Assembly: GCA_024696885.1 (NCBI GenBank)
Contig: JAILGI010000056.1
Coordinates: forward strand, 1 to 36,728
Origin: Bacilli bacterium
GTDB lineage: Bacteria; Bacillota_I; Bacilli_A; RFN20; CAG-826
Direction: 5' to 3'
Length of the DNA: 36,728 nucleotides
The notes under the pieces are model-generated. The model was not told the origin of the DNA. It searched no databases and was given only the letters and a program-made list of their open reading frames with translations. Position 1 is the first letter of the stretch, and every line of letters starts with the position of its first letter. The position numbers and the translations under genes were made by a program. Positions 3,353 through 35,520 of this stretch are shown piece by piece.

Positions 3353-3460
3353 AAAATATGGATGCTATTTGCTCTCAAATAACGGTTCCAACTTATCAAT
3401 ATTTTGATTATAAGGTGCAGTATGTATAACTTTTGTGATACAGTGTTATTAGGATATTTT

Positions 3461-3781
3461 ATGAAAAAGACCGAAATAATACATACAAGGGTAACACCTG
3501 AAACAAAAAGAAAATGTGATGAGATATTTAATAAACTTGGCATCACCACAAGTTACGCAATTACACTATTTTTAAATCAAGTAATGCTTAGGAAAGGATT
3601 ACCTTTTGATTTGACATTACCAGAAAAAGAAGATTTGGTTGCTTTTGCGATAAATGTTAATTCTATAGATGGCAAAGTTCCTAGTGAAAAAGCCCAACAA
3701 ATCATGCACTTATATGATGATGGGCTTATTGATTTAGAAACTGCAGAATCCGCAATTAGAAAATTGCATATTAGTAAATAG
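3461..3781 (+). CDS. RelB/DinJ-family type II antitoxin
   Basis: MKKTEIIHTRVTPETKRKCDEIFNKLGITTSYAITLFLNQVMLRKGLPFDL is the RelB/DinJ ribbon-helix-helix signature. Confidence 0.85.
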   Translation: MKKTEIIHTRVTPETKRKCDEIFNKLGITTSYAITLFLNQVMLRKGLPFDLTLPEKEDLVAFAINVNSIDGKVPSEKAQQIMHLYDDGLIDLETAESAIRKLHISK

Positions 3782-3783
3782 AT

Positions 3784-5169
3784 TTAAAGGTAATTTTTAA
3801 TTAAGAAATCCACTCTCGCAATAAGGGAATCACTAATCGCAGTGATTCTTTCTTTATCTAAGTATTTTGATTCAAATTGTAAAAATAATGGTTTTATTCT
3901 TTCTTTAAGTATATTTAGTTTATCTATACTTAACCATTTAAAGGATTTAACTAACTTTAATTGTTCTAATGGTTTTTCTTTAAATGGTTTAGAAACAATA
4001 TCCTTAAATGGTTTGATATCAAATGTGAGTTTATCAAAACCAAAAGAAGCACCACTATCAAAGATAGGGGACGGACCAATAAACTTTAATGTAATTGCGT
4101 CTCTAATAAAACCAAAATTGTTAAAGTGTCTATCTTCATTAGCGATGATGAAATCAAAGACGATTAATTTATCTAAATAATCTTCCACATTTTCAATGCC
4201 TAAATGATGAGCACATTTCACAAAATGGGAATAAGCACTGTCGTTATTATTCTTCTTTAACACTTTATTAATTTGATAGGCAGTAACTAAGTCTTGGCTA
4301 TTATTAATAAAATCTTCACATTTGGAATATGGATAATCTCCATCATCAAAGAATGAATACTGAACAGAATCTAAACCTAATATAGAGGCTATTTCAGAGG
4401 CTACTACTTCGTTGAATGGTTCTTGTCGATAAGGATTAGAGCCACCTTTCATCATTACTCTTTTATTGTTAATAATCTTCCAACGCTTTTTTAAATTACC
4501 TACAGATGTGCTATCAGGGGAAGAAAGATTCAATTCCTTCTTTCGTTTATTACCATTTAATAAAATGGTTCCTAAATCTTCTGAGAAGTCATTTTCAAAG
4601 AAGTTGATATCTTCCCAGGATATATTTTCATCTTTTGGTTTAATCCAATATTGATCAGATAAACTTAAGCCAAAACATTTTAATAACAATACTTTTGGAT
4701 CAGAGATATTAAGTTTATCTAAAGCATCTCTAATACCACTTCTAGTTAATGGGATACTTCTATCATTCCACCAGTCAAGAAGGGATTTTATATCTTTAAC
4801 ACCTATAGGAAGTAGTTCTTTTAAATAGACATCACCAATAGTGTGAATTCTTCCCGTTTCAAAAGAAATGGTTAAGTCTACGACCTGATTATTTAAGTGC
4901 ATCAATGAACAATATAAAAGTTCAGAAGATTGGAATCCTTTCTTTAGAAGTTTTAGTTGTTGCTCTAATAGTTGTCTTTTTTTAATTAAGATATCAAGGT
5001 CATATAATTCTTGTCCATTGACATATTTGCTATTCTTTTTACCGTTCTCTGACCATTGATGGTAATAGTAAATATTACCACCTATATTCTTAATGGATAT
5101 ATATCCCTTAGGTAGTTGTTTTATTCTTTCATTTAGCTCTTTAATCTTGTTAATTGTTTCTTGTTTCAT
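3784..5169 (-). CDS. HipA-like kinase with an N-terminal coiled-coil/DUF6788-like extension
   Basis: Kinase motifs IVFDFIIANEDRHFNNFGFI and IFDSGASFGFD; N-term KELNERIKQLPKGYISIKNIGGNIYYYHQWSENGKKNSKYVNGQEL. ATG at 5169 preferred over 5187 because the -10 box overlaps the upstream ATG region. Confidence 0.75.
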   Translation of the reverse strand: MKQETINKIKELNERIKQLPKGYISIKNIGGNIYYYHQWSENGKKNSKYVNGQELYDLDILIKKRQLLEQQLKLLKKGFQSSELLYCSLMHLNNQVVDLTISFETGRIHTIGDVYLKELLPIGVKDIKSLLDWWNDRSIPLTRSGIRDALDKLNISDPKVLLLKCFGLSLSDQYWIKPKDENISWEDINFFENDFSEDLGTILLNGNKRKKELNLSSPDSTSVGNLKKRWKIINNKRVMMKGGSNPYRQEPFNEVVASEIASILGLDSVQYSFFDDGDYPYSKCEDFINNSQDLVTAYQINKVLKKNNNDSAYSHFVKCAHHLGIENVEDYLDKLIVFDFIIANEDRHFNNFGFIRDAITLKFIGPSPIFDSGASFGFDKLTFDIKPFKDIVSKPFKEKPLEQLKLVKSFKWLSIDKLNILKERIKPLFLQFESKYLDKERITAISDSLIARVDFLIKNYL

Positions 5170-5175
5170 GAGATC

Positions 5176-5220
5176 ATTATACCCCATCTTAACCCCTTTG
5201 TTAACCCCTTTTTTAACCCC
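5176..5220 (-). promoter_or_regulatory. hipA-like promoter (TTAACA-17-TATAAT) embedded in three 12-bp-phased GGGGTTAA repeats
   Basis: Plus-strand TTAACCCC at 5189-5196, 5201-5208, 5213-5220; minus-strand -35 TTAACA at 5199-5204, -10 TATAAT at 5176-5181. Confidence 0.6.
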
Positions 5221-7516: not shown

Positions 7517-8710
7517 TTATTCATGTTGTTTGACTGGACCACCGAATAATTCTAATTTCTTTAAGAGTTTCTTCATTCCTTCGACATCTAATCTGGCGGT
7601 GTTATGGGATGTATAGCTCTCACCTAAGTTTAACTTTTTATTTCCTTTAGAGAAATATTTATCATAGTTTAAGTCACGGTTATCCGCTTTCACGCAGAAG
7701 AAGTTACCCATATCGATGGATTTTAACATTTCTTCTTGTGTCACTAATGTTTCGTATAGCTTTTCACCGTGTCTTGTACCAATATAGCTAATACCGGTTT
7801 TAGAACCTGTTAATTCGATAACCGCTTTAGCGAGTGTATCAATTGTGGCTGCAGGTGCTTTTTGGACGAATAAGTCACCTTGTTCACCATGTTCAAAGGC
7901 ATATAAGACAAGATCCACAGCGTCATCTAATGTCATCATGAATCTAGTCATATCTGGATTAGTGATGGTAATGGGTTTACCTTCATGGATTTGATTTAAG
8001 AACAATGGGATAACAGAGCCTCTAGAGGCCATAACATTACCATATCTAGTTAAACATAAGACTGTATCATCTTTTAAGAGTTGTCTACTTCTAGCAATAA
8101 CGTTCTTTTCCATTAAGGCTTTAGAGATACCCATAGCGTTAATGGGGTAGGCGGCTTTATCTGTTGATAAGAAGATGGCTTTCTTAACGTGATTACGGAC
8201 ACAGGCGGTAATGACGTTATCACTGCCCATGACGTTAGTGCGGACCGCCTCCATGGGGTAAAATTCACAAGATGGGACTTGTTTTAACGCTGCAGCGGAA
8301 AAGACATAGTCAACACCTTTAAAGGCATCGATGATGCTATCGAGATTACGGACATCACCGATATAGAATTTTAATTTATCGTTGTTGTATGCTTTACGCA
8401 TATCATCTTGTTTCTTTTCATCTCTAGATAAGATTCTGATTTCTTTAATGTCTGTATTTAAGAATCTATCTACGACTGCATGACCAAATGATCCTGTACC
8501 ACCAGTAATTAATAAGACTTTATCTTTTAATATTGTGGTATCTTTACTAGCGTATTCATTTAATCTATCTTTAATACCTTGTAATTTGATTTGATCTGCT
8601 TTCTTTTCATCTACTTCATAAGAAACATATGTTCTTAAAGGCATACCCACGACTTGGGATGCTTCTTTTTGTGTTAATTTGCAATTTTTGCGTATTTCTT
8701 TAAGTGTCAT
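7517..8710 (-). CDS. capE: CapE-like UDP-GlcNAc 4,6-dehydratase/5-epimerase with N-terminal XRE-type HTH domain
   Basis: N-term MTLKEIRKNCKLTQKEASQVVGMPLRTYVSYE (HTH_3-like), then KDKVLLITGGTGSFGHAVVDRFL, SAAALKQVPSCEFYPMEAVRTNV. Confidence 0.88.
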   Translation of the reverse strand: MTLKEIRKNCKLTQKEASQVVGMPLRTYVSYEVDEKKADQIKLQGIKDRLNEYASKDTTILKDKVLLITGGTGSFGHAVVDRFLNTDIKEIRILSRDEKKQDDMRKAYNNDKLKFYIGDVRNLDSIIDAFKGVDYVFSAAALKQVPSCEFYPMEAVRTNVMGSDNVITACVRNHVKKAIFLSTDKAAYPINAMGISKALMEKNVIARSRQLLKDDTVLCLTRYGNVMASRGSVIPLFLNQIHEGKPITITNPDMTRFMMTLDDAVDLVLYAFEHGEQGDLFVQKAPAATIDTLAKAVIELTGSKTGISYIGTRHGEKLYETLVTQEEMLKSIDMGNFFCVKADNRDLNYDKYFSKGNKKLNLGESYTSHNTARLDVEGMKKLLKKLELFGGPVKQHE

Positions 8711-28896: not shown

Positions 28897-29328
28897 TTAT
28901 TTATTTCGGATAAAATATTTACCTTTCTTGGCCTTCCAGTCAATTCTGTTGCCATCCTCGTCAGTTATGCCATAACCAAGGAGACTATTTTTTGAACAAA
29001 TATCGCACTTAACAACGGTATATGTTTTGCCGTCTATTGTGAATTGAGTATAGTTATCTGCTTTTACACGATTATGATTCCACCACATTGGTTCGTAATT
29101 ATTGTAAATATTCGAATCAGACTCGTTCTTAAAATCACTTTTTGGTCTAATATGATCAATTTCCCATCCATATGAATAATTCTTCCCGTCTCCACCCGGT
29201 CTTTTACGCATCGTTTCTGTATCGCCGTAATCGTTGCGGTACATCCAGGTTCCAAAACAATCGGTTTGCCACTCATTATTTTTGCCATAAATAGCATCCC
29301 ACAACGCCAATGCTTCTTCTTTTTCCAT
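28897..29328 (-). CDS. HNH endonuclease-like protein
   Basis: GWEIDHIRPKSDF...NNYEPMWWNHNRVKADNY (DH ... N ... N..K.D HNH pattern). Confidence 0.8.
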   Translation of the reverse strand: MEKEEALALWDAIYGKNNEWQTDCFGTWMYRNDYGDTETMRKRPGGDGKNYSYGWEIDHIRPKSDFKNESDSNIYNNYEPMWWNHNRVKADNYTQFTIDGKTYTVVKCDICSKNSLLGYGITDEDGNRIDWKAKKGKYFIRNK

Positions 29329-29334
29329 AGCCTT

Positions 29335-30021
29335 TTATTCCTTTCTTTTTGTTTTGTCATCGATATAAGCTAAAATGAACTCAACAAATTGATAAATACC
29401 ACTCGATGGATTGGGTTTAATATTAGAATCAACATCCTTGTTTTTCATTAGCCGAGTGGCCTTTCTTATATCCCCACCATATTTAGTCAAGAAACGATGC
29501 ATGTCTTCCATATTCTTTTCATACTTTTTTGGACTACCGTTTTTCTTAAGAAAGGCATTAATCTTTGTTATATATTGGCTGCGTTTAATAGGGGTTTCAA
29601 GATTTTCAAAGTAATGATAAATCCACACTTCAAAGCATTCATTTGACCAGCACGCTTTCCAATCAATATTACCATCAAGTTCATCTTGTTCTCTTATTAA
29701 ATCATATGCCTTATCAAAATCTTTATAATCATCCTTATCATAGAAAATCCATACATTAGTGATGATTTCTTGTTTCTTTTTTCGCTTTTCGACATCTTTA
29801 ATCGCAAATTCAACAAGATCAATAGTATGTTGGCTCTTATTTGTTTTCACAGGTATGATTTCAATATCTTCTTTTTTGACCTTAAGTACTTCAGAAACAA
29901 ACACTTTTAAATCTTCCACGTAAAGTGGTTCTGTTTTGGTCCCTTCCGCGTAGATAAGATGTCTGCCGAATGGAATCAAGAATGTAGGAATGTTTCTTCT
30001 TCCTTGAGGTCTATTCATCAC
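29335..30021 (-). CDS. RloB family (Toprim-like) protein
   Basis: HLIYAEGTKTEPLYVEDL, NVWIFYDKDDYKDFDKAYDLI, ACWSNECFEVWIYHYFE; overlaps the ATPase gene by 11 nt. Confidence 0.85.
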   Translation of the reverse strand: MMNRPQGRRNIPTFLIPFGRHLIYAEGTKTEPLYVEDLKVFVSEVLKVKKEDIEIIPVKTNKSQHTIDLVEFAIKDVEKRKKKQEIITNVWIFYDKDDYKDFDKAYDLIREQDELDGNIDWKACWSNECFEVWIYHYFENLETPIKRSQYITKINAFLKKNGSPKKYEKNMEDMHRFLTKYGGDIRKATRLMKNKDVDSNIKPNPSSGIYQFVEFILAYIDDKTKRKE

Positions 30022-31288
30022 ACCAATTTAATCCTTTCTTGATAAATGGATCCGCGCCAAAGCGACCTTCTAAATATTGCTTGCTATATACGGCATCTTT
30101 TCTAATCATTTCACCCTTATAATTGACAATATTTGAAAGTGGAACATATTGCGTGGAATAATCATCATCTCTATAAGCAAACCAAATTTCATCTCTTCTA
30201 AAAAGTTTGTTGTTCATGTTGATAATATCATGAGAATTGAAGATTAACTGTCTGGACTCATTCTCTTTTGAAGCAAATAATTCAATAATTGCTCTTAAAA
30301 GTTTTGGATGGAGATGGGCATCGAAATCATCAGCAATACAAACACTTTCTTTTGGAGAAGTTAATATATCAAAGATTATATTAACTGCCTTAATTGTGCC
30401 ACTAGATTCATTCGTAAGAGGCATAGACACCAACTTGCCATCTTTGTTTTTGCGTTGGATATATAAGTAGTAGAAACCTGGATCTTTTTCCTCGAAAGAA
30501 AGACCTTCAATTCTAATATCTAACGCATTGAGCATTTGTTTGCTTTTATTTAAACAAGGTTTTAACATCTCGACAGCATCTTTTAGATAATTAAATGTTC
30601 TTAATTCTCTTCTTACCCAAACATAAGATCCTATCTCTGTGTAAAAAATGAAAATGGGTGTCGCGTCAGCATTTGTTTGGTCTTGAACAAACGAATCATT
30701 GAAGTATTTTAAAAATGTATAGTTCTTTGAAAGCGACCTGTTGTTTTTGATTAAATCAATATCGCTCAATAATTCGGATTCAACAATTCCACTGTTATTT
30801 CTTTTAAACAATGTTAAAAACTCTAAGTCTTCTAATTTGCGATAGACCATTTCTTCTTCTAAGATTTCAGCATCTACCACCCAAGCAAGTTGTCCAGCAA
30901 AAGGATTAGCAACGGTTTGTTGCATTTTATTTAGATTTAATGTCAAAGAGTAGCCGATTTCGTAGCCGCCTCTAACAATATAAAGGGTAAAAACGGTATT
31001 TTTATTATCTAAATAAATATTTGGAAAATAGTTCTCATTTTTAATTGAATCGTTAAAGAGTGAATTTTGTTTAATAATTACCGCAAAAGCATTGAGTGCC
31101 TTTAAAAGATTCGATTTACCACCACCATTAGGACCATAGATAGAAGTCACCTTAAGTAATCTTTCACCGCTAACTTCAATCACGTGTTCTGGATATTCAG
31201 ACACAACTGTTTTTGGGCAAGCTTCCATAGTAAAGACCTGCTCTTTTTGAATTGATTTGAAATTAGATACTCTAAATTCTTTAAGCAT
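30011..31288 (-). CDS. AAA family ATPase (AAA15/21, RloA-like)
   Basis: N-term EFRVSNFKSIQKEQVFTMEA; Walker A YGPNGGGKSNLLKAL; signature/Walker B region ESSGTIKAVNIIFDIL...VCIADDFDAHLHPKLLRAII; H-loop FNSHD. Confidence 0.9.
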   Translation of the reverse strand: MLKEFRVSNFKSIQKEQVFTMEACPKTVVSEYPEHVIEVSGERLLKVTSIYGPNGGGKSNLLKALNAFAVIIKQNSLFNDSIKNENYFPNIYLDNKNTVFTLYIVRGGYEIGYSLTLNLNKMQQTVANPFAGQLAWVVDAEILEEEMVYRKLEDLEFLTLFKRNNSGIVESELLSDIDLIKNNRSLSKNYTFLKYFNDSFVQDQTNADATPIFIFYTEIGSYVWVRRELRTFNYLKDAVEMLKPCLNKSKQMLNALDIRIEGLSFEEKDPGFYYLYIQRKNKDGKLVSMPLTNESSGTIKAVNIIFDILTSPKESVCIADDFDAHLHPKLLRAIIELFASKENESRQLIFNSHDIINMNNKLFRRDEIWFAYRDDDYSTQYVPLSNIVNYKGEMIRKDAVYSKQYLEGRFGADPFIKKGLNWCDE

Positions 31289-31298
31289 ATTTGCACTC

Positions 31299-31376
31299 CA
31301 TGAGATTTTTTCTCACGGATATTATGCCATGGTTTTCCAATGTTGTAAAGACCTCATGAGATTTTTTCTCACGAAT
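31299..31376 (-). promoter_or_regulatory. Promoter of the RloA-RloB-HNH operon bracketed by two palindromic operators
   Basis: 22-bp repeats CATGAGATTTTTTCTCACG(G/A)AT at 31299-31320 and 31355-31376, each with palindrome TGAGA-N5-TCTCA; between them minus-strand -35 TTTACA (31344-31349), 17-nt spacer, extended -10 TGGCATAAT (-10 at 31321-31326). Confidence 0.65.
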
Positions 31377-31878: not shown

Positions 31879-32349
31879 TTAAATTGTGTTGACTGTAATT
31901 ATTTTTTCGCCACCATAATAATGCGCGTTGTAAAGAGAATTATTAATAAAACCAGCGACAACGTACGCTTCTTTTTTGAGTAGTTGTGGTAAATGGTTTG
32001 TGATTCAGTTATTTATTCGTTTTTCCATTTTATTCTTCAGATTATCTATGTCACTGCCGTTTTTGAGTTCCAAATCAACAAAAACTGATTTTTCTCCATT
32101 TGATAAAACGGCAACAATATCCATCTCTGTTATTTCGGTCGAATAATTGAAGATAAATGGATGAAAACTATCAACATTTTCAAAACACCTTAAATCTAAA
32201 AGCAAGCAAAACAAAGAGAGAAGATTTTTAAACTCATCTCTTAAAAAGCCAATCCAAGAAAAACTTTTAAAGGTTTCGATTCCGTAAAGGTTTGGCAAGT
32301 CATCAAAAGATGACAATAACTTCCGAGCCAATACTTTGTTTAATCTCAA
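31879..32349 (-). pseudogene. Interrupted ORF with PD-(D/E)XK-like motif; single in-frame TGA
   Basis: 114-aa ORF ...EMDIVAVLSNGEKSVFVDLELKNGSDIDNLKNKMEKRINN, then TGA (32005-32007), then the same frame continues ITNHLPQLLKKEAYVVAGFINNSLYNAHYYGGEKIITVNTI* to 31879. Confidence 0.5.
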
Positions 32350-32428
32350 GCATTTATATTCATAGATTATTTATTTGTAATGTCTCGTTAACTGATGTAA
32401 TTTTAGATAGTGTTAGGGACAAAGTCTT

Positions 32429-33661
32429 TTAGAAGTCAACTATTTTAAGTTGACTATGTTTGTCTATTTTTTTAACGAAAGTTAAAGAAACAAGCTTGCT
32501 AGATTCTTTAATGACGTCGCCAGTTTCAGAAACGATGGTGATTTTTTCTATTTCGGCATCGTAAATAGAACCATTAACATCAAATTGTTCTAATCCAATC
32601 ATCTTAAAATCAACACTACCAGAATATTTTGTATTATTGTTTGCAAGAAAACTAAAGAAGTTCCCACTACTAGTTAGAATACCGGTTAGAATACCTCTAC
32701 AAGAAACGGGTTCTTTAATTGTTTTTGAATTGTTTTTTATATATTGAAGAGCCTTACTAATAGCAACCTTTTTTTCTTTGGTTCCTCTTTTGCTCATGTC
32801 GTATGAAATTGGCTTGCTTCTGTCTGGTGATGCCACAACGATTTTTGGTTTTGTATCATTTGTTTTTTCAAAAGTTTTTATAAGATTGTCATATTTTTTT
32901 AATACTTTTTCTGTTTTTTTGTTTTGTTCAGATAAAAGCGAAACAGTATCTGATGTTGATAACATATTTCCAAGTTCCGAAATACCTTCTGAAGAAGACG
33001 GCGTCATTTTGTTTTCGCCTTGAAGCAAGGGACCATCGTGATCGTTAAAAGTAAAAGTAATCACCGTCGATGAATGCATAACAGAAAAATCTGAATTCAT
33101 AATATCTAACGGATGAGATAAGTTTTTACAAATTGAGCTAATATAATTAATGATTTTATAAATAAGTTCAGTTACACAGCCTTTTTTGTTTTGAAGAACA
33201 ACACTAACTTTGTTTGAGTTCTCTTGTCTTGCTTCTAAAGCAAATTGATGGTAGTCAAAAAGAGAATCCATGTCACAAAAGTTTCTTTTAAATATATTTC
33301 CTTTAATTGAATACTTTTCTTTAAAGTCATCAACTTTAGATAAAACGCCAGTAGACGAATTTTTAAATAGCAACTCGTATTTTGGTTTATCTATAAATAA
33401 CGACTGAATGTTTTTGTATCCGTTGTTTACATCATTAATGTCATCCAAAGAAACCTTGGTTACGTTCCATCCAAATAAATCATCTTTATTTTCTATTTCT
33501 AAAAAAGCATAATAATCACCAGCATTAGAGGTAATGAAGCATCTTGAATAATCAATTTCAATAATGCTTGTTTCAATAAAGAAATCACCATATCCATTTA
33601 CAGGTATGCGTCTTTCTTCTACTAAATCAAAGATTCTTGACATGGGACTATTCTTCTTCAA
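32429..33661 (-). CDS. Uncharacterised 410-aa protein, second gene of a two-gene module
   Basis: Intact ORF; overlaps upstream gene by 14 nt; beta-rich N- and C-terminal regions joined by a Lys/Ser/Thr-rich middle. Confidence 0.7.
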   Translation of the reverse strand: MKKNSPMSRIFDLVEERRIPVNGYGDFFIETSIIEIDYSRCFITSNAGDYYAFLEIENKDDLFGWNVTKVSLDDINDVNNGYKNIQSLFIDKPKYELLFKNSSTGVLSKVDDFKEKYSIKGNIFKRNFCDMDSLFDYHQFALEARQENSNKVSVVLQNKKGCVTELIYKIINYISSICKNLSHPLDIMNSDFSVMHSSTVITFTFNDHDGPLLQGENKMTPSSSEGISELGNMLSTSDTVSLLSEQNKKTEKVLKKYDNLIKTFEKTNDTKPKIVVASPDRSKPISYDMSKRGTKEKKVAISKALQYIKNNSKTIKEPVSCRGILTGILTSSGNFFSFLANNNTKYSGSVDFKMIGLEQFDVNGSIYDAEIEKITIVSETGDVIKESSKLVSLTFVKKIDKHSQLKIVDF

Positions 33662-34091
33662 TTAATGGTTTAAAATCATGATAACAATTTGTACCGTCAT
33701 CTTCTGGTTTAAAAAGGTAGTAATTAATGTGGCCTTCTTCATCTTCATCAGAAGCAGTACCTCGTGAAATGTTGATTTCTCCTACAGCAATGAAATTTGC
33801 ACTATTTCTTTCTGAAGGTACAAAATCTGTATATTGAATCAAATTTTCTCTGGATGTATATATAGAAACACTGAAATTGGAAATTTTGGTTTTTAAATTC
33901 TGTCTTTCATATGAAGGCATCTCATTATTATTATAATGCATTATTGTTGGATAAAAATCCTCTTTGCAAAGGGGCGAATCAACTGAATGATAAATAGCAC
34001 GGTAAACTGGTTTAAACTTTTTTGGTTTGGATTCTTTAAGAATTCTCTCCTTAATCTCTTCGCTATAAATGTTACTAAATTTATCTTTCAT
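33648..34091 (-). CDS. Uncharacterised 147-aa protein, first gene of a two-gene module
   Basis: Intact ORF with overlapping downstream partner; acidic C-terminus (ASDEDEEGHINYYLFKPEDDG). Confidence 0.65.
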   Translation of the reverse strand: MKDKFSNIYSEEIKERILKESKPKKFKPVYRAIYHSVDSPLCKEDFYPTIMHYNNNEMPSYERQNLKTKISNFSVSIYTSRENLIQYTDFVPSERNSANFIAVGEINISRGTASDEDEEGHINYYLFKPEDDGTNCYHDFKPLIEEE

Positions 34092-34447
34092 AAGAATAAT
34101 TGTAACAACAATTAATTATTATTGCGATATCAAATTGTTAACTATTTACAACTATCTATAGTAAAAACAATAATCCAATTAATAGAATTAATAAATAGAA
34201 AGAAAATAATAAATTAACAATCTAATCACCAATATAAACTAACACCATCTTATTGGCTGGTTGTGATCCATATCTCATTTTAAAATACAAGCGGATACAC
34301 ATCCTTCTTTATAAGTGATTCTAAATTAGATATTAATTTATTAATAAAATATCTCTTTACTATATTTCTTAAAACAAACTTCTTTAGCTTTCTTACCTAT
34401 TTCTTGCAATTCTTTTATATTTAATTTTTTATTATATACTTAAGCGC

Positions 34448-34600
34448 TTATGCATCACCCGATGCACATACATATCCAACTTCATTACTTATAATAAGGT
34501 AAGCGCACCCACCATTAATATCTCTAATAGCACTTCCCCGTCGACGAGTGTTTGTTGAACCAAAAGCAACCACACCACCACTAATTGAAACACGAGCCAT
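34448..34600 (-). CDS. Small ORF, 50 aa (MARVSISGGVVAFGSTNTRRRGSAIRDINGGCAYLIISNEVGYVCASGDA)
   Basis: ATG to TAA, locally higher GC than flanks and protein-like composition; no clear SD. Confidence 0.3.
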   Translation of the reverse strand: MARVSISGGVVAFGSTNTRRRGSAIRDINGGCAYLIISNEVGYVCASGDA

Positions 34601-34668
34601 GTGCCATTTTTAAAAATATGGCTATATATTTATAATGCATCATCAGTAAAAAGAGCAGGGACATGATA

Positions 34669-35520
34669 TTATTTCTTGTTGTTTTTATTATCTTCAAATT
34701 CCTTAATTATATTTTTAGAAATGCTGTATTGTTGAACAAAAAGACATAGAGAAAACAAATTATCTAACTGTTTCTTTTTATTTACGAAAAACCATTTATA
34801 TTGTGGGTCATCTTTTTTAACTTCTGGATGTCTAATTAATTGACTATACTCTCTAATCTTTTTAATTATTGGTTGATCTGAATATGTTTTAAAAAGCGGT
34901 TCAACTAAATCAATAAAAGTATGTAAGTAATTCTCTTTTGTTTTAACATCTCTATTGCTTAAGTATCCCATAATAGCGTCAGCAATATCTGTCTTTGATT
35001 CTGCCGCAATTGCTTCCGCTACTGGATTGTCCATAGCTAATTCAACATTCAAAGAATCTTTTTTAATGTAATGTTTGTAATTAAAACATTTTAGGCTAGA
35101 TTCAATCATTTCCACCAATTGGTTAATTATCTCCATATTTAACGAAATAATAAAATGTTTACTTAATATATCGGATTGTTTGTTGATTATATAATTCACC
35201 ATCGTCAAAACAATTTGACAATATGTCAAAAACTCATTTAATAGTAATTCTTTAGTGTCTTCATCAATTAATGAATTATAAGAATCGTTTGACAAAACAT
35301 CATATTTAAAAAGAGAAGAACAATTCTGCCATATACAATCCTTATAATCTGGGTAAATTCTTCTCAAATCTTTGCAATAAACAAAAGCATCTTCTAGTAA
35401 TGAAGAAAGTTTAATCAGACGATCAATCTCCGCACTGTTGATGAAGCTGTTGATTTTTTTAAATTCATTAACAGGGTTGCTGTTGTAATTCTTTATACGT
35501 TCAAATAATGATTTATACAT
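34669..35520 (-). CDS. Uncharacterised 283-aa predominantly alpha-helical protein
   Basis: Intact ORF, helix-rich composition; no recognised motif. Confidence 0.6.
   Translation of the reverse strand: MYKSLFERIKNYNSNPVNEFKKINSFINSAEIDRLIKLSSLLEDAFVYCKDLRRIYPDYKDCIWQNCSSLFKYDVLSNDSYNSLIDEDTKELLLNEFLTYCQIVLTMVNYIINKQSDILSKHFIISLNMEIINQLVEMIESSLKCFNYKHYIKKDSLNVELAMDNPVAEAIAAESKTDIADAIMGYLSNRDVKTKENYLHTFIDLVEPLFKTYSDQPIIKKIREYSQLIRHPEVKKDDPQYKWFFVNKKKQLDNLFSLCLFVQQYSISKNIIKEFEDNKNNKK

What the first reader, a model, noticed from the sequence alone, without database searches (positions are those of the whole stretch)
31299..31376. Promoter of the RloAB-HNH operon is clamped between two near-identical palindromic operators
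Seen: 22-bp repeats differing at one base, 56 bp apart (about 5 helical turns), each containing TGAGA-N5-TCTCA. One lies upstream of -35 (TTTACA); the other overlaps the expected start site after an extended -10 (TGG-CATAAT). Inference: two-site or looping repression, or induction, of a potentially toxic defence operon. No obvious DNA-binding regulator is encoded next to it, so either one of the three proteins autoregulates or an external repressor controls it.
Basis: partly seen in the sequence, partly recalled or inferred. Interest (0 to 1): 0.7.

Follow-up and report, generated by a model that had tools for sequence, protein, structure and literature searches.

The report
Dedicated palindromic operators of AbiL operons
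The promoter of this phage-defence (AbiL) operon is flanked by two copies of a palindromic DNA switch that recurs in front of related defence ATPase genes across many bacterial families and almost nowhere else in those genomes, suggesting that the defence system regulates its own expression.

Summary
Two 19-bp palindromes (C-R-TGAGA-AAAAA-TCTCA-Y-G, minus strand) lie 56 bp apart around TTTACA-17-CATAAT in front of the RloA/RloB operon; 0.04 such sites are expected by chance. RloA/RloB match AbiLi/AbiLii of the AbiL abortive-infection system (PADLOC E=2e-65, 6e-17). All four operons with 67-91% identical RloA in other genomes keep both sites and both promoter boxes while the rest of the leader has diverged. 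Single sites precede RloA homologues of only 25-42% identity in nine families of the class. Positions are fixed: 6-8 bp upstream of -35, or 5 bp after -10 (over the start site). In 280 genomes of the order, 13 of 14 exact sites precede RloA. In 14 carrier genomes, 18 of 28 relaxed sites are at RloA; the other ten are coding sequence (5), terminator-like (3) or ambiguous (2). So no larger regulon is visible, and the operator goes with the ATPase, whose partners vary (RloB, RES, SEC-C, none; HNH only here). Best explanation: autogenous control by AbiLi, alone or with AbiLii. Operator and specificity are well supported; the DNA-binding protein, the sign of regulation and looping are untested.

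The parts
31299..31317 (-). Operator B (proximal): CGTGAGAAAAAATCTCATG; core 31301-31315 starts 5 bp after the -10 box and covers the predicted start site
   Evidence: conserved in all relatives with RloA >=67% identical
31355..31373 (-). Operator A (distal): CGTGAGAAAAAATCTCATG; core 31357-31371 ends 7 bp before -35
   Evidence: an upstream-only form recurs in distant families
31344..31349 (-). -35 box TTTACA
   Evidence: invariant in 5 orthologous promoters
31321..31329 (-). extended -10, TGG-CATAAT; CATAAT at 31321-31326
   Evidence: CATAAT invariant in 5 orthologous promoters; the TG is not invariant
31296..31299 (-). ribosome-binding site GGAG, touching the end of operator B
   Evidence: sequence; invariant
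30011..31288 (-). rloA / abiLi: AAA_21 (ABC/SMC-type) ATPase, 425 aa; proposed DNA-binding autoregulator
   Evidence: Pfam AAA_21 5e-21; PADLOC AbiLi 2.4e-65
29335..30021 (-). rloB / abiLii: RloB family (TOPRIM/OLD-related) proposed effector, 228 aa
   Evidence: Pfam RloB 2.8e-27; PADLOC AbiLii 6.2e-17
28897..29328 (-). small HNH-like ORF, 143 aa, 6 bp after rloB; accessory, not found in relatives
   Evidence: no family hit; absent from the loci

Best explanation
The palindromes are the dedicated operators of the AbiL (RloAB) defence operon and are read by a protein the operon encodes, most likely the ATPase AbiLi (RloA) as a dimer, alone or with AbiLii (RloB). The two 5-bp arms are centred 10 bp apart (one helical turn), as expected for a two-fold symmetric protein. 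Bound at site B, over the transcription start, it would block initiation; bound at site A, just upstream of -35, it would contact polymerase or stabilise binding at B. The operon would thus hold its own product low, and loss or engagement of the ATPase, for example during infection, would raise expression. Shown here: the operators, their fixed promoter geometry, their conservation and their near-exclusive link to AbiLi. Inferred: the identity of the binding protein, repression as the sign, and derepression on infection.
For: (1) The 5-genome footprint keeps the two palindromes, -35, -10, GGAG and ATG as its invariant blocks. (2) In 280 genomes of the order, 14 exact RTGAGAAAAAATCTCAY sites: 13 directly in front of RloA (the G476 hit precedes a RloA cut by the contig end), 1 inside folC; reversed control pattern 0. 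(3) In 14 carrier genomes, 18 of 28 relaxed sites are at RloA; the other ten are inside coding sequence (5), terminator-like (3) or near a gene start (2, ambiguous). (4) Tree of 60 ATPases: 20 of 21 site-bearing rows form one clade (SH-aLRT 91) with one site-less and one undeterminable row; 3 changes versus 18 in shuffles. Perfect sites are expected in 0.015 of 79 upstream regions by chance. (5) Geometry across families: 6-8 bp before -35 in 13 cases, exactly 5 bp after -10 in 8. (6) Partners of the site-bearing ATPase vary: RloB mostly, RES protein (G410), SEC-C proteins (G096), apparently alone (G085), RloB remnant only (G590, G384, G334). (7) Published NetFlax work predicts this AAA ATPase class (D29) as a hub antitoxin with swapping partners and tested it neutralising RloB/TOPRIM-type toxins (PMC10440598); antitoxins commonly autoregulate. 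(8) Four ATPases outside the clade carry a same-shaped palindrome with other arms, e.g. TGTGA-A5-TCACA (0.22 expected).
Against: No DNA-binding domain was recognised in RloA or RloB. AlphaFold models were too poor to use (mean pLDDT 46 and 56). I know of no ABC-type defence ATPase shown to be a sequence-specific repressor. Three RloB-less loci carry operators with one mismatch (G096, G410, G384), leaving room for a role of RloB. Upstream-only sites are also compatible with activation. The enlarged tree does not hold all site-bearing rows in one clade (L092, L077/L089 and the Enterococcus plasmid fall outside, weakly placed).
Confidence: 0.6

Rival explanations
1. An unlinked host- or phage-encoded repressor (for example an XRE-family protein) binds the palindromes and controls the operon from outside.
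For: No HTH protein is encoded by the operon. G085 has an XRE gene divergent from the ATPase and G096 has XRE plus an ImmA-like gene downstream. One viral contig carries the exact 19-mer just after an XRE gene (L173).
Against: The regulator would need essentially one target in genomes of at least nine families. XRE genes are not next to the operon in the window or in most relatives. The XRE protein of L173 has only generic matches (25-47% identity) in carriers, and equally in two genomes without an AbiL match (G001, G012).
Confidence: 0.2
2. AbiLii (RloB), or only the AbiLi-AbiLii complex, is the DNA-binding repressor, as in conditional cooperativity of type II toxin-antitoxin systems.
For: RloB follows the ATPase in most site-bearing loci. 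Loci without intact RloB include three with a degenerate operator.
Against: Perfect sites persist in G085 (no RloB found) and in G590 and G334 (RloB remnants only).
Confidence: 0.13
3. The palindrome acts as an RNA hairpin in the 5' leader that controls translation or mRNA stability.
For: Site B would form a 5-bp hairpin near the mRNA 5' end, directly before GGAG.
Against: Site A, and the only site of many relatives, lies upstream of -35, outside the transcript. The pair flanking the arms is A-C in G558 and G412. No Rfam match.
Confidence: 0.04
4. The two copies are direct repeats for promoter deletion (phase variation) or chance low-complexity repeats.
For: 19-bp direct repeats flank the promoter.
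Against: No locus was seen with a single site and a missing promoter; single-site relatives have complete promoters. Conservation and chance statistics exclude chance.
Confidence: 0.02

Closest known systems
AbiL abortive-infection system (AbiLi + AbiLii; Lactococcus, cited in PMC3985639 and PMC10440598)
   Same: Same two genes in the same order; both proteins match the PADLOC models.
   Different: The passages read here describe no operator for AbiL. The window operon has an extra HNH-like ORF.
AbiE type IV toxin-antitoxin, AbiEi autorepression (PMC7319586, PMC3985639)
   Same: A component of an abortive-infection operon binds repeats over its own promoter (shown for AbiEi, proposed here).
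   Different: [quoted passage not shown] here two palindromes lie 56 bp apart and the operon encodes no known DNA-binding domain.
BrxR/WYL repressors (PMC9122601) and RptR (PMC12255303)
   Same: Repeats at promoters of defence islands; RptR and its site are conserved together.
   Different: Those repressors are dedicated genes in the island; none is next to the operon here.
Septu PtuAB and retron-associated PtuA ATPases
   Same: Related AAA/ABC ATPase; an HNH-like ORF is present in the window.
   Different: PtuA models match only weakly (E about 1e-6; PDB E about 1e-4); RloB is the conserved partner.

Membership tests
AbiL system | AbiLi ATPase | tested here: met
   PADLOC AbiLi 2.4e-65, best of 44 families
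AbiL system | AbiLii / RloB as second gene | tested here: met
   Pfam RloB 2.8e-27, PADLOC AbiLii 6.2e-17; overlaps the end of rloA
AbiL system | abortive infection against phage | not testable with these tools
   needs phage assays
Septu (PtuAB) | PtuA ATPase with PtuB HNH as the two-gene core | tested here: not met
   RloB is the second gene; HNH-like ORF only in the window, no PtuB hit
PARIS (AriAB) | AriA with AriB as partner | tested here: not met
   AriA model weaker (1e-21) than AbiLi; partner matches AbiLii only
Autoregulated toxin-antitoxin type operon | operator over own promoter, conserved with the operon | tested here: met
Autoregulated toxin-antitoxin type operon | encoded protein binds the operator and represses | not testable with these tools
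   needs EMSA and reporter assays
Autoregulated toxin-antitoxin type operon | recognisable DNA-binding domain in a component | tested here: inconclusive
   none among Pfam matches; structure models of low confidence
Regulon of a global regulator | several promoters with the site per genome | tested here: not met
   two of ten off-target relaxed sites lie near gene starts and stay ambiguous

The most novel reading that the evidence does not exclude
An ABC/SMC-type defence ATPase (AbiLi) is itself a sequence-specific, two-fold symmetric DNA-binding repressor that reads a dedicated operator over its own promoter, linking its nucleotide or infection state to transcription of its effector; operator arms have diverged in step with ATPase subfamilies (TGAGA versus TGTGA).
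Probability: 0.42. Interest if true: 0.75.

Novelty: new variant of a known kind. Interest (0 to 1): 0.6.

Why it matters
How defence operons without a dedicated regulator gene are kept quiet and switched on is largely open. A conserved operator tied to AbiLi gives a direct test, marks AbiL-type operons in genomes, and would make a widespread defence ATPase a transcription regulator. It would also tie the published antitoxin-like, partner-swapping behaviour of these ATPases to classical toxin-antitoxin autoregulation.

Tried and rejected
Global regulator: the relaxed motif has 83 hits with up to 2 mismatches in the own genome against 66 for the reversed control, so weak sites are background; exact sites point to RloA. 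Phage source: the paired motif in viral contigs gave two unrelated contigs; RloA itself was not found there. Structure prediction of RloA and RloB: low confidence, so no fold search was made. Rfam: nothing. Specificity-determining residues: only a few weak candidates, no DNA-binding motif. XRE candidate from L173: generic matches only. RloA homologues on Gram-negative, Bacteroidota, actinobacterial and clostridial plasmids and phages: no TGAGA operator. The G085 pair was first taken as unrelated and later proved to precede a RloA homologue.

Full report
Observation. On the minus strand the leader of rloA reads CGTGAGAAAAAATCTCATG - AGGTC - TTTACA - 17 - CATAAT - ATC - CGTGAGAAAAAATCTCATG - GAGTGCAAAT - ATG. 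The two 22-mers differ at one base and are 56 bp apart. TGAGA-N5-TCTCA occurs nowhere else in the window and is not expected by chance (0.04). Promoter-like hexamers are no commoner in this region than in shuffles (16 found, 15.5 expected), so the promoter rests on conservation.

What the operon is. The ATPase is AAA_21 and best matches PADLOC AbiLi (2.4e-65); the second gene is RloB and matches AbiLii (6.2e-17). This is an AbiL-type operon. The third, HNH-like ORF matches no family and is not beside RloA in the relatives examined.

Footprint. Orthologues with 91, 72, 70 and 67% identical RloA all carry both sites, 55 or 56 bp apart. In the alignment of the five leaders, the two palindromes, TTTACA, CATAAT, GGAG and ATG are the invariant blocks. 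In G590 (70%) RloB is cut down to about its first 32 residues, yet both operators persist.

Depth. Single perfect sites precede RloA of 34-42% identity (G412, G464, G273, G047) and several of 25-33% in further families. In a 60-row tree, 20 of 21 site-bearing ATPases lie in one clade with one site-less and one undeterminable member. In an enlarged 77-row tree the backbone is weaker: L092, L077/L089 and the ATPase of an Enterococcus casseliflavus plasmid fall outside that clade, so one origin or several cannot be decided. The Enterococcus plasmid (NZ_CP068133.1) is a named, complete record with an exact site and RloB sequence running to the record end.

Specificity. In the order (280 genomes) 13 of 14 exact sites are in front of RloA; the reversed control pattern had none. 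In 14 carrier genomes from 14 genera, 28 relaxed sites (TGAGA-W5-TCTCA) were found, 18 at RloA. The ten others: five inside long coding sequences (G000 C10; G047, G334, G412; G558), three terminator-like hairpins (G316 and G423 C9; G423 C21), and two near the start of a metabolic gene (G464, G592), which stay ambiguous. The reversed control gave 2, so a mild excess of off-target sites is only partly explained, by palindromic terminators.

Geometry. Sites take two fixed positions: core ending 6-8 bp upstream of -35 (13 cases; one more at 10), or core starting exactly 5 bp after -10 (8 cases; two at 12). Three upstream-type promoters have a further site 62-77 bp upstream of the first. The window combines both positions. 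Promoters were chosen by a simple score, so single cases can be wrong: L084 and L087 were misplaced because of an early alternative start codon and L089 was placed poorly. By eye these three have the upstream position. For L051 two promoter placements are possible.

Partner genes. Site-bearing ATPases are followed by RloB in most loci, a RES-domain protein in G410, SEC-C-type proteins in G096, no recognisable partner in G085, and RloB remnants in G590, G384 and G334. The ATPase is therefore the constant element. This is an argument from co-occurrence, not proof; RloB was probably ancestral.

Mechanism. Arms centred one helical turn apart suggest a symmetric dimer. Site B covers the predicted start and would block initiation. 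Site A, just upstream of -35, could repress through polymerase contacts or activate. Spacing between paired sites varies (55, 56, 62, 72, 77), so strict looping phase is not required. Published work predicts these ATPases as hub antitoxins with swappable partners, and tested them neutralising TOPRIM/RloB-type toxins (PMC10440598). On the other side, F. nucleatum AbiLii was toxic in E. coli but its AbiLi gave no antitoxicity (PMC3985639). Autoregulation by antitoxins, including AbiEi, is established (PMC7319586). I found no paper describing an operator for AbiL in the library searched, which lacks most subscription papers; the original 1999 AbiL paper was not read.

Generalisation lead. Four ATPases outside the clade have a same-shaped palindrome with other arms: TGTGA-A5-TCACA (L094, L021), TACGA-T5-TCGTA (L091) and AGTGA-TAATT-TCACT (L018) (0.22 expected). 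Degenerate forms recur in relatives of L021, but close relatives of L094 and L018 lack a clean site, so this stays a lead.

Verdict. A real, dedicated operator of AbiL-type operons, most likely autogenous. The operator claim is strong (about 0.9); autogenous control by AbiLi, alone or with AbiLii, about 0.6; looping and sign of regulation open.

Noticed in passing
L173:5094-5112 (IMGVR_UViG_3300019376_000004): Exact operator 19-mer just after an XRE-type repressor gene in a 33-kb viral contig, with an integrase-like gene downstream; not followed by a T-run.
   Followed up: partly
L094, L021, L091, L018 upstream regions: RloA homologues outside the clade carry same-shaped palindromes with other arms, such as TGTGA-AAAAA-TCACA.
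   Followed up: partly
L109:3092-4009, L107:3031-5634, L110:3978-5907: Site-bearing ATPases followed by a RES-domain protein, SEC-C-type proteins, or a second AAA ATPase gene pair instead of intact RloB.
   Followed up: partly
L007 1738-1833, L108 3864-3926, L110 3766-3846: Truncated RloB remnants behind an intact ATPase with the operator kept: repeated loss of the effector.
   Followed up: partly
window 5251-28623 and L049:9019-12000: AbiL lies beside a surface-polysaccharide gene cluster in the window and also in G412, although their ATPases are only 39-42% identical; possible shared insertion hotspot.
   Followed up: no
window 7517-8710: Polysaccharide epimerase-like ORF with an apparent N-terminal helix-turn-helix of about 50 residues; a similar one in L049:9019-10212.
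   Followed up: no
window 3404-5187: RelB/DinJ-like small ORF next to a convergent HipA_C-like gene (Pfam 2.8e-6, below its cutoff); possible toxin-antitoxin genes.
   Followed up: no
L079 -146, L080 -148, L106 -143 relative to ATG: Second, distal operator-like sites 62-77 bp upstream of the first in upstream-type promoters.
   Followed up: partly
window 32005-35520: Four ORFs upstream of the operon on the same strand without Pfam or PHROG matches.
   Followed up: no
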